The position numbers and the translations under genes are program-made. DNA of 64,000 nucleotides, from positions 1 through 64,000 of the forward strand of contig CAMCXA010000004.1 in NCBI GenBank assembly GCA_945883115.1, given 5' to 3'. This DNA is from Alsobacter soli (GTDB taxonomy: Bacteria > Pseudomonadota > Alphaproteobacteria > Rhizobiales > Beijerinckiaceae). Shown piece after piece: positions 6,619-9,696 of this stretch. Positions within the stretch are counted from its first letter, which is position 1, and every line of letters begins with the position of its first letter. The notes below the pieces were generated by a model. It worked only from the letters and a program-made list of their open reading frames with translations. It was not told the DNA's origin and did no database searches.

Positions 6619-9600
6619 ATGACCGACACTGCCGAAAAGCGCGATTATTCCGAGACCCTGTTTCTCCCGCAAACGGAATTTCCGATGCGGGCTGGCTTGC
6701 CGCAGCGCGAGCCGGAACTGATTGCGCGTTGGAACAGGATGGATTTGTACAAGCGCCTGCGCGAAACCGCCGCCGGTCGCCCGCGCTTTGTGCTGCATGA
6801 CGGCCCTCCTTACGCGAACGGCAACATCCATATCGGCCACGCGCTCAACAAAGTGCTCAAAGATTTGGTCACGCGAAGCCAGCAAATGCTGGGCTTTGAC
6901 TCAAACTATGTCCCCGGCTGGGATTGCCACGGTCTCCCCATCGAATGGAAGATCGAGGAGCAATACCGCGCCAAGGGCAAAAACAAAGATGAAGTCCCAG
7001 TCATTGAATTCCGCAAAGAATGCCGCACATTCGCCGAACATTGGCTCTCCGTGCAACGCGAAGAGTTCAAGCGCCTCGGCATCACAGGCGATTGGGATAA
7101 TCCCTACTCCACCATGGCCTTCCACGCCGAAGCCCAAATTGCCCGCGAGATCATGAAGTTCAAGGATAACGGCTTGCTCTATCGCGGCTCGAAGCCGGTG
7201 ATGTGGTCGGTTGTTGAGAAGACGGCGCTCGCTGAGGCCGAGATCGAGTATCACGACCATACGAGTGATATGGTTTGGGTGAAGTTTCCGATCACAACAG
7301 GCGATCATTCAGGCGTTGCGTCCGTTGTCATCTGGACAACCACACCTTGGACGTTGCCAGGCAACCGTGCCATCTCCTACTCTCATAAAATTTCCTACGG
7401 TCTTTATGAGGTCACAGCGAATGAGCGCGACTTCGGGCCAAAGATCGGCGAAAAATACATCCTCGCTAACAAACTTGCAGAAGCGGTTTCTGGTTCTGCT
7501 AAAATCACCCTCGCGCATGTTGCAGACATTCCTGCTGATGCGTTTGAAACGATGGTATGCGCCCACCCCCTCGCCCATCTTGGCTACTCTTTCGACGTCC
7601 CCCTGCTCGATGGCGATCACGTCACCGATGACGCTGGTACAGGCTTCGTCCACACCGCCCCTTCCCACGGTCGTGAAGACTTTGAAATCTGGATGGCAAA
7701 TGGCCGCCAATTGACTGAGCGCAACATCGACACGCGCATCCCCTTCACCATCGACGATGACAGCGTCTACACCAACGAAGCCCCGGGCTTTGAGGGCAAG
7801 CGCGTCATCACCGAGAAGGGCGACAAGGGTGACGCCAACGAGGCCGTTATCAAAGCGTTGATCGATCAAGATAATCTCGTCGCACGTGGCCGCCTGAAGC
7901 ATCAATATCCGCATTCCTGGCGCTCCAAAAAACCGGTCATTTTCCGCAATACACCGCAATGGTTTATCGCGATGGATAAGCCTTTCACCTTCGATGCATC
8001 CCTCTCCCCAAGGGAGAGGGTGGCTGCGGAGCAGACGGGTGAGGGTCTAGCGCCCGCCACGTCTGACTCCAGTCCCTCATCCGTCGCGTCCCGCGACACC
8101 TTCTCCCGGAGGGAGAAGGAAAACGCCTTCACACTACGCCAAACAGCCTTCGACGCCATCAAGAAAACCGAATGGGTGCCCGAAACCGGCGAAAACCGCA
8201 TTCGCGGCATGATCGAGAACAAGCCGGATTGGGTCATGTCCCGCCAGCGCGCATGGGGCGTGCCGATCACGGTTTTCGTGCACAAGGAAACCAAAGAACT
8301 TCTGCATGATCCGAAGGTCGATGACGCCATTGCGTCCGCTTTTGACACGGAAGGCGGCGATGCATGGTTTGCGGCGGGCGCAAAAGAGCGCTTCCTCAAA
8401 GCCGCTTCGAAACCCGTTAACCCCGATCACTACGACATGGTCATGGACGTGCTCGATGTCTGGTTCGATTCCGGCTCCACCCATTCCTATGTGCTCAATA
8501 CGCCCGCGCATTTCCCGACGCTTGCAGGCATTAAGCGCATTGTCGATGGCGGCAAAGACCGTGTGATGTATCTCGAAGGCTCGGACCAGCATCGCGGTTG
8601 GTTCCAGTCGAGCTTGTTAGAGAGTTGCGGAACACGCGGCCGCGCTCCCTTCGATGTCGTTCTCACCCACGGCTTCGTGCTGGATGAGAAGGGTCAGAAA
8701 ATGTCCAAATCCTTGGGCAATGTCACTGCCCCTCAGGACATCATCAAAGATTCCGGCGCGGACATTCTCCGCCTCTGGGTCGCGGCAGCGGACTATTCGG
8801 ACGATCTCCGCATCGGGCCGGAAATCCTCAAAACTTTTGTGGAAACCTATCGCAAACTCCGCAACACAATCCGCTGGATGCTCGGCACGCTCGCCCATTA
8901 TGATGACGCCCACCGCGTAAAGCCAACTGACATGCCCGAGCTTGAACGGCTGATGCTGCATCGCTTGAGCGAAATCGCTCCCATCGTCAGCAAAGCCTAC
9001 GAGACCTATGATTATCGGAAAGTCATCACCGAGCTATCAGCCTTCCTGAACACCGAGCTTTCGGCCTTTTATTTCGATATCCGGAAAGACACACTCTATT
9101 GCGATCCCCACACGAGCATGGCGCGACGCTCGGCACTCACCTGCATCGAGGAAATCTTCCGCGCAGTGACGCTGTGGCTCGCCCCGATCCTCGTTTTCAC
9201 AGCCGAGGAATCATGGCTCTCGCGCTATCCCGATGCCGAGTCGGTTCATCTCGAAACTTTCCCCGAGATCCCGGTGGCTTGGCAGGATGAAGCGCTCGCC
9301 GCGCGTTGGTCGACAATCCGCAAAGTCCGCCGCGTAGTCACGGGAGCTTTGGAAATCGAACGCGCCCAAAAGCGCATCGGCTCCTCGCTTGAAGCAGCAG
9401 CTCACGTCTACATCGCCGACAAAGATCTGGCCGATCTCGTCCGGAGCGTTGATTTTGCAGATATCTGCATCACCTCCGCCATCACCATCATCGATGGCGA
9501 GGCCCCTGCCGATGCGTTCCGGCTCGACGATGTGCATGGCGTTGCCGTTCTCTCGGCGCGGGCGGAAGGCCAGAAATGCGCCCGTTCATGGCGCTACTCG

Positions 9601-9696
9601 ACGGAAGTCGGCACCGACAAGGACTATCCCGATGTCACCCCACGCGATGCAGCCGCCCTCCGCGAACGTGACGCACGCGCCGGAGCCGCTCATTGA
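6619..9696 (+). CDS. ileS: Isoleucine--tRNA ligase with in-frame repeat insertion
   Basis: This class I synthetase charges tRNA-Ile. The 1025 residues include [13 protein letters not shown] (HIGH motif, about residue 58), the CP1 editing domain (TTPWTLPGN near 240; [15 protein letters not shown] near 345), KMSKSLGN near 695 and an anticodon-binding domain. There is no C-terminal zinc finger, as in other alphaproteobacterial forms. Residues about 461-501, just after [11 protein letters not shown] and before LRQTAFDAI, are an insertion encoded by a 120-base palindromic repeat. The insert is hydrophilic and lies at the exit of the editing domain, where a surface loop could tolerate it. The gene overlaps lspA by four bases. 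Confidence 0.95.
8000..8119 (+). repeat. Palindromic repeat element inserted in ileS
   Basis: Two strong hairpins bracket the element. CCCTCTCCC pairs with GGGAGAGGG around a 3-base loop (8000-8020). CCTTCTCCC pairs with GGGAGAAGG around a 3-base loop (8099-8119). Between them GGGTGAGGG (8037-8045) can pair with CCCTCATCC (8074-8082), giving a cloverleaf-like fold. From outer arm to outer arm it is 120 bases, or 40 codons, so the reading frame survives. From memory, this CCCTCTCCC...GGTGAGGG...CACCTTCTCCC pattern resembles dispersed intergenic repeats of alphaproteobacterial genomes; a database search would confirm it. No second copy was seen in the window. Confidence 0.75.

What the first reader, a model, noticed from the sequence alone, without database searches (positions are those of the whole stretch)
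8000..8119. Palindromic repeat element spliced in frame into ileS
Two near-identical outer hairpins and an inner paired arm make a 120-base (40-codon) element inside an essential gene, adding about 40 hydrophilic residues between the editing domain and the catalytic core. The element looks like a dispersed intergenic repeat. Rickettsia palindromic elements are known to insert into ORFs without killing the protein; an analogous case in a Hyphomicrobiales-like synthetase would be notable.
Basis: partly seen in the sequence, partly recalled or inferred. Interest (0 to 1): 0.75.

Follow-up and report, generated by a model that had tools for sequence, protein, structure and literature searches.

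The report
Palindromic repeats recur in IleS loop
A small repetitive DNA element that normally sits between genes lies in frame inside this bacterium's essential isoleucyl-tRNA synthetase gene, and related bacteria have gained repeats, of different kinds, in the same predicted disordered loop many separate times, which marks it as a recurrent landing site for repeat DNA in an essential protein.

Summary
Window 8000-8119 is a 120-base palindromic unit, with a 9-bp-stem hairpin at each end and paired inner arms, lying in frame in ileS (6619-9696). It adds 40 codons. Full or partial copies lie on six other contigs of the same genome; the four contigs checked have them outside genes' domains. AlphaFold predicts residues 460-502 disordered (pLDDT under 50).

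Nine of ten other genomes of the genus whose loop I read lack it. In the window's GTDB family I count 21 of 117 genomes, against 0 of 118 for alaS (judged by length) and 1 of 114 for valS. A tree needs at least 21 changes for 27 inserted tips.

It works like Rickettsia palindromic elements and intragenic REPs, but is not shown to be a member. Best explanation: a mobile palindrome tolerated in a permissive loop; whether the loop is actively favoured is open. New variant of a known kind.

The parts
6619..9696 (+). ileS, isoleucyl-tRNA synthetase, 1025 aa, open through the element
   Evidence: ORF; best PDB matches are IleRS (8c9e, 8c9f, 1ffy); Pfam tRNA-synt_1 and Anticodon_1
7975..8133 (+). Loop D453-T505 (53 residues; under 20 in most relatives), the recurrent insertion site
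   Evidence: pLDDT under 50 at residues 460-502
8000..8119 (+). Palindromic repeat element, 120 bases = 40 codons, from 2nd base of codon 461 to 1st base of codon 501
8000..8020 (+). 5' terminal hairpin (CCCTCTCCC type), 9-bp stem, 3-base loop
8021..8048 (+). 5' inner arm, carries GGGTGAGGG; pairs imperfectly with 8071-8098
   Evidence: (I1), fold
8071..8098 (+). 3' inner arm, carries CCCTCATCC
   Evidence: (I1), fold
8099..8119 (+). 3' terminal hairpin (CCTTCTCCC type), 9-bp stem, 3-base loop

Best explanation
The 120-base element is one copy of a dispersed, non-coding palindromic repeat (CTCTCCC/CTTCTCCC hairpins, RIME-like) that inserted in frame into the loop joining the IleRS editing domain to the second half of its catalytic core. 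The ribosome reads it as about 40 hydrophilic, predicted disordered residues. The enzyme tolerates them because the loop is an exposed linker, so the insertion survives purifying selection. The same loop has taken palindromic repeats repeatedly and independently in Hyphomicrobiales; inserts then shrink (single hairpins) or decay. Shown here: the repeat, its copies, the open frame, the recurrence, both orientations, all three phases, and absence in close relatives. Inferred: mobility, exposure, tolerance by disorder, decay, and neutrality.
For: Structure and copies. Loop alignment across IleS. One insert (G030) used as query matched all 17 genomes tested, 2-103 matches each, a genome's own ileS insert included where it matches. 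Type 2 matched in 5 of 5 genomes (28-151 matches) and type 4 21 times in its own genome; these counts include the insert itself and both strands of one place. Orientation and phase. Tree changes: 14 for 15 tips, 21 for 27 tips. Disorder. Hairpins with the repeat core in 80 ileS loci: 11 in this loop, 0 elsewhere in the matched coding part (two more lie upstream of the matched start).
Against: Tolerance alone may not explain the excess. 21 inserts in 117 loops of about 33 bases is roughly one per 0.2 kb. Even G170, with 151 type 2 matches in 4.4 Mb (both strands counted), has about one per 29 kb, or one per 3.5 kb if all lay in an assumed 12% of intergenic DNA. Divergent copies are missed, so this is order-of-magnitude only. 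No empty site in the same species and no target-site duplication was shown. Other genes can be hit too (valS, glyS, a type ISP methylase). Within the window's genus the tree does not group the two inserted genomes neatly.
Confidence: 0.72

Rival explanations
1. The loop is favoured, not just permissive: an insert here brings a benefit, for example an mRNA hairpin that slows the ribosome between the editing and catalytic halves, or a disordered linker that tunes IleRS activity or amount, so inserts are kept once they arise.
For: Large excess over alaS and valS and over the rough density of copies per genome. Three sequence families without BLAST similarity converge on one loop, which argues against one transposition enzyme's target preference. 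The element is the most structured 120-base stretch of ileS sampled.
Against: Most relatives live without any recognisable insert. Several inserts are reduced to one hairpin, and some long loops show no clear hairpin (L105, L110, L115 and others), as expected of decay. No expression or activity data.
Confidence: 0.17
2. One ancestral insertion was inherited widely and later overwritten by recombination with other repeats of the genome, or lost.
For: The Rickettsia japonica paper prefers one origin for its RPE-4/6/7 insertions (PMC3767692).
Against: Both orientations, three codon phases, different points in the loop and families without similarity, sometimes within one genus (g35: type 1, its relative type 3, type 4 and none; g22: types 1, 2); 21 changes for 27 inserted tips.
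Confidence: 0.06
3. Assembly error or pseudogene: the insert is not in a functional ileS.
For: The window's genome is in 104 contigs, and repeats break assemblies.
Against: Genomes of one to four contigs carry such inserts (G030, G045, G046, G133, G170, G172), as do named isolates (Devosia oryzisoli PTR5, Tianweitania populi KCTC 42249). Frames are open and synthetase residues conserved. Whether G000 has a second ileS was not settled.
Confidence: 0.02
4. The 40 residues are an old lineage-specific protein insertion of ordinary origin, and the palindrome is coincidence.
For: IleS loop length varies widely without recognisable hairpins in several genomes.
Against: 83-84% identical full-length copies elsewhere in the same genome, fold z of -4.
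Confidence: 0.01

Closest known systems
Rickettsia palindromic elements (RPE-1 to RPE-7)
   Same: About 100-150 bp palindromes, some in frame in conserved genes without breaking them and in exposed protein regions; Rickettsia japonica ileS itself is listed with a 144-bp RPE-7 (PMC3767692).
   Different: Different taxon. RPE-type inserts sit at the same sites in all Rickettsia orthologues those authors aligned, whereas here insertion is patchy and repeated. Sequence similarity to RPE and the RPE-7 position in ileS were not tested.
Intragenic GTAG and CGTC REPs (PMC3733652)
   Same: Short hairpin repeats, mostly intergenic, found inside genes including unspecified tRNA synthetases of X. oryzae, E. 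litoralis and S. alaskensis; X. campestris and X. oryzae recB have different REPs at about the same site. The type 4 insert in G158 holds CGTCATTGCGAG, which looks like a CGTC tag.
   Different: The window element is a 120-base two-ended unit, not a 20-40 bp tagged hairpin. Those authors report other genes of one functional category hit at different sites.
RIME, Rhizobium-specific intergenic mosaic elements (Osteras 1995)
   Same: Recalled: about 100-bp palindromic intergenic units of rhizobia. The G030 IleS insert matches 155 plasmid records, 123 of them Sinorhizobium or Rhizobium.
   Different: Paper not held, so no direct comparison; the window element itself found only 12 plasmid records at E 0.001, from Azospirillum, Methylosinus and Xanthomonas. 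Inserts here are coding.

Membership tests
Rickettsia palindromic element (RPE) | Dispersed palindromic repeat of 105-146 bp | tested here: met
   120 bp, 12 BLAST pieces in own genome; size range from PMC2229807
Rickettsia palindromic element (RPE) | In-frame insertion into conserved genes | tested here: met
   Open ileS frame, conserved flanks
Rickettsia palindromic element (RPE) | Sequence homology to an RPE family | not tested
   No RPE sequence was fetched
Rickettsia palindromic element (RPE) | Found in Rickettsia | tested here: not met
   Host is Hyphomicrobiales by its IleS relatives
RIME (rhizobial intergenic mosaic element) | Two palindromes in a roughly 100-bp unit (recalled) | tested here: met
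RIME (rhizobial intergenic mosaic element) | Sequence match to rhizobial RIME | tested here: inconclusive
   A sister insert (G030) matches Sinorhizobium plasmids; the window element did not at E 0.001; the RIME paper is not held
[quoted passage not shown]
   Not seen next to the window's terminal hairpins by eye; CGTC seen in the G158 insert
GTAG/CGTC REP | RAYT (Y1_Tnp) transposase in the genome (GTAG type) | tested here: not met
   No PF01797 match in the window's genome (98% complete); present in 5 of 19 inserted genomes
MITE | Terminal inverted repeats with target-site duplication | tested here: inconclusive
   Halves are inverted repeats; no duplication established, no same-species empty site

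The most novel reading that the evidence does not exclude
The IleRS loop is a selected landing site: palindromic repeats of different families are recruited there again and again because a hairpin in the mRNA, or a disordered linker in the protein, between the editing and catalytic halves benefits the cell by tuning IleRS synthesis, folding or editing. This would be convergent domestication of junk DNA inside an essential enzyme.
Probability: 0.17. Interest if true: 0.87.

Novelty: new variant of a known kind. Interest (0 to 1): 0.62.

Why it matters
In-frame palindromes are known from Rickettsia, Wolbachia and scattered REP-rich genomes. Whether shared sites mean hotspots or shared ancestry was discussed but not closed (PMC3767692), and whether insertion in particular genes is fortuitous was questioned (PMC3733652). 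IleS of Hyphomicrobiales offers a replicated natural experiment: one loop, several repeat families, many independent insertions, uninserted sister species. That makes tolerance versus benefit testable in an essential enzyme, and gives a natural map of a permissive linker. I found no report of the IleS hotspot in the searches (open-access library only, terms as listed there); the supplement of PMC3733652 that lists REP-carrying genes could not be read.

Tried and rejected
The first loop regular expression was wrong and found nothing; it was corrected. Rfam gave only sub-threshold matches. Hairpin patterns with a 4-base spacer found nothing in the window or genome; a 3-base spacer with two mismatches found 11 places against 5 for the reversed control. 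RAYT as mobiliser: no match in the window's genome. I first took type 3 for a separate family; BLAST among the 27 inserts gives 13 matches between types 1 and 3 and none between the type 1/3 group, type 2 and type 4, so type 3 is counted as a relative of type 1. Type 3 as a dispersed repeat is only weakly supported: one further 27-base match in 200 kb of G146, none in 39 kb of G130 beyond the insert itself, and in 69 kb of G048 one weak match while the reversed control gave two; a plasmid search found 3 records. Plasmid 'none' annotations were not used as evidence of intergenic location, because some records carry almost no annotation. Long frames over other repeats in which the family match lies beside the element or no family matches: L304, L314, L296, L311, L317, and L200, L204, L207, L209, L219 among others.

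Full report
OBSERVATION. The finding is real at the stated coordinates. 8000-8020 and 8099-8119 are hairpins with 9-bp perfect stems and 3-base loops, 81% identical to each other, and the two halves form a 50-base inverted repeat at 72% complementarity. The stretch folds far better than shuffles (z -4.0, 0 of 200) and is the lowest-energy of the 120-base stretches of ileS sampled every 30 bases. ileS (6619-9696, 1025 aa) is open throughout. The element spans the second base of codon 461 to the first base of codon 501, a net 40 codons.

DISPERSAL. In the window's own genome (2.6 Mb, 104 contigs, 98% complete) BLAST finds 12 pieces on seven contigs, ileS included; two others are full-length at 83-84% identity. 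Elements on C21, C68, C5 and C31 lie outside the Pfam domains of their neighbours: an AhpC/TSA-family gene and a release-factor gene, a cysteinyl-tRNA synthetase and a GNAT gene, a transglycosylase, and two ABC-transporter genes. C2 and C11 were not checked that way.

THE LOOP IN RELATIVES. I aligned IleS from 80 named loci, mostly Hyphomicrobiales, and read the loop in 170 loci; 134 of the 170 loops are under 20 residues. Of the 170, 17 loci (15 genomes after removing duplicates) had an insert with a stem of 8 or more: the window, one congener (G005 = L032), Methylocystis (L052 = G025), Boseaceae BT-24-1, Microvirga, three Devosia, Tianweitania, a Rhizobiaceae MAG, and five unnamed family members. 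Of ten other genomes of the window's genus whose loop was read, nine have an 11-residue loop without an insert. The tenth, G005, has one hairpin at the same boundaries as the window. This looks like a collapsed or half element, but the IleS tree places uninserted congeners between the two, with weak support, so loss, transfer or poor resolution remain open.

FREQUENCY AND CONTROLS. In a draw of 129 genomes of the window's GTDB family, 127 had an IleS match. I set aside nine with only weak or partial matches (G031, G053, G118, G136, G142, G148, G162, G163, G179) and one cut by a contig end (G157), leaving 117. I read the loop DNA of 103 of these (one search lists 109 genomes, six outside the draw); for the other 14 I relied on an unbroken match of normal length. 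21 of 117 carry a palindromic repeat. Type 1 (CTCTCCC/CTTCTCCC hairpins): G000, G005, G025, G030, G032, G034, G045, G046, G124, G131, G149, G161. Type 2 (CCTCATCCTGAGGAG units): G028, G133, G169, G170, G172. Type 3 (CCCTCCCC hairpins): G048, G130, G146. Type 4 (CGTCATTGCGAG units): G158. Types were assigned by reading sequences. BLAST among the 27 inserts links types 1 and 3, and finds nothing between the 1/3 group, type 2 and type 4 at E 0.001: three families. A strict test (stem of at least 8 with a core motif) passes 20 of 27 inserts and, apart from a duplicate locus of G005, none of the other 207 loops; all five type 2 inserts and the type 4 insert fail it, as does L113. Controls in the same draw: alaS, 118 full-length matches spanning 2,562-2,616 bases, so no insert of 40 codons, though a single hairpin of 20-50 bases would not show and no alaS DNA was read; valS, 114 genes (96 single full-length, 17 split, one truncated), of which I fetched 57 (all 55 with spans of at least 2,700 bases, the truncated one and one short reference) and found one palindromic insert, in G149. 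The other 57 valS genes were judged by span only. Fisher p is 1.6e-7 against alaS and 4.6e-6 against valS, treating genomes as independent, which they are not. The IleS count includes two single-hairpin inserts (G005, G045), which the length-based controls might miss. If type 3 is set aside the count is 18 of 117.

COPIES IN OTHER GENOMES. One type 1 insert (from G030) used as query matched all 17 genomes tested, with 2-103 matches each, a genome's own ileS insert included where it matches; two of the 17 (G028, and the genome of L053) do not hold a clear type 1 insert themselves. G124, G149 and G161 were not in that test. Type 2 matched in 5 of 5 (28-151). Type 4 matched 21 times in G158 and in three congeners (55, 42, 1). 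These counts include both strands of one place. Type 3 is weak: one further 27-base match in 200 kb of G146, none in 39 kb of G130 beyond the insert itself, and in G048 a reversed control also rang.

INDEPENDENCE. Inserts occur in both orientations: by BLAST the G030 insert runs opposite to the window's and to that of L056, and the same way as those of L257 and L263; L030 and L072 also look opposite to the window by the order of their motifs. Because the unit is itself quasi-palindromic, orientation rests on its asymmetries. Inserts begin in all three codon phases and at different points of the loop. Single genera hold different kinds: g35 has type 1, type 3, type 4 and none; g18 types 2, 3 and none; g22 types 1, 2 and none. 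With the loop removed, a tree of 166 IleS needs 14 changes for 15 inserted tips. A tree of 219 rows needs 21 changes for 27 inserted tips; the ten shuffles printed gave 25-27, so there is slight clustering. On a 47-row tree with 21 inserted rows, 15 changes are needed. Many branches are weakly supported, and changes can be losses as well as gains.

WHERE IN THE PROTEIN. HMMER's best alignment to a solved IleRS breaks at residues 455/507, and Foldseek's best matches are bacterial IleRS (TM about 0.8). AlphaFold gives mean pLDDT 80.4, with 460-502 under 50. In 80 ileS loci, hairpins with the repeat core fall 11 times in this loop and never elsewhere in the matched coding part; two lie upstream of the matched start, and 19 in flanking DNA.

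OTHER GENES. A search with one insert peptide against the 129 genomes gave 55 rows in 22 genomes. I checked seven loci in long frames besides ileS: glyS (G022, between the core and the DALR domain) and a type ISP methylase (G025, inside Type_ISP_C) look truly intragenic; the other five do not. ileS of G161 was also among the rows. At least four more rows in frames over 350 aa (two in G022, one each in G134 and G038) were not checked. Of 29 further repeat loci brought in (L194, ileS, excluded), 43 frames of at least 180 aa cover the match; I scanned 20 with Pfam and in none does a Pfam match span the element. A 70.8% match over 95% of the window element lies inside a 10.9-kb annotated gene of a Methylosinus trichosporium plasmid; its frame was not checked.

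MECHANISM. Shown: a dispersed palindrome sits in frame in an essential gene, and the site is hit repeatedly. Inferred: the repeats move by an unknown route (no Y1 transposase match in the window's genome; 5 of 19 inserted genomes have one), insertion elsewhere in genes is mostly purged, and this linker tolerates loops of up to 81 residues (G048). A rough density comparison suggests more than tolerance: about one insert per 0.2 kb of loop DNA, against about one match per 29 kb in the most match-rich genome seen (G170), or per 3.5 kb if all copies lay in an assumed 12% of intergenic DNA. Divergent copies are missed, so the excess is only an order-of-magnitude statement. Because families without similarity converge, one enzyme's target preference is unlikely; the common factor is the host site.

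LITERATURE. Delihas 2007 (PMC2229807; passages) reviews in-frame RPE and other small elements. Di Nocera 2013 (PMC3733652; passages, sections 6 and 15, part 1 of section 17) describes intragenic REPs, including unspecified tRNA synthetases, and asks whether some targets are fortuitous. The Rickettsia japonica paper (PMC3767692; passages and section 12) lists a 144-bp RPE-7 in ileS; it weighs hotspots against one origin and prefers one origin. A Sinorhizobium sRNA paper (PMC2873474; passages) cites RIME. Osteras 1995 and Ogata 2002 are not held and were seen only as references or recalled. I found no report of the IleS hotspot.

VERDICT. Confirmed; works like an RPE or intragenic REP, not shown to be a member of either. 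A new variant of a known kind, with an unexpected hotspot.

Noticed in passing
L329 (G149 valS): A type 1 palindromic repeat also lies in frame in valS of G149, a genome whose ileS carries one too.
   Followed up: partly
L293 (G022 glyS): Type 1 repeat in frame in glyS between the tRNA_synt_2f and DALR domains.
   Followed up: partly
L320 (G025): Type 1 repeat in frame inside the Type_ISP_C domain of a restriction-modification protein.
   Followed up: no
L402 1501-1630 (Methylosinus trichosporium pOB3b1): 70.8% match over 95% of the window element inside a 10.9-kb annotated SDR-family gene; frame not checked.
   Followed up: no
G031, G148, G053 and G118, G136, G162 (genera g21, g43): These family members matched the IleS query only weakly (E 1e-13 to 1e-15; 34-37% identity for the three listed: G031, G148, G053), perhaps a different IleS type.
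   Followed up: no
G170 C1:2877556-2878354: Five type 2 repeats in a row, starts about 172 bases apart.
   Followed up: no
G000 contigs C2 and C5: Repeat copies lie close to contig ends (C2 217-865; C5 69703-69896 of 70831), so repeats may break the assembly there.
   Followed up: no
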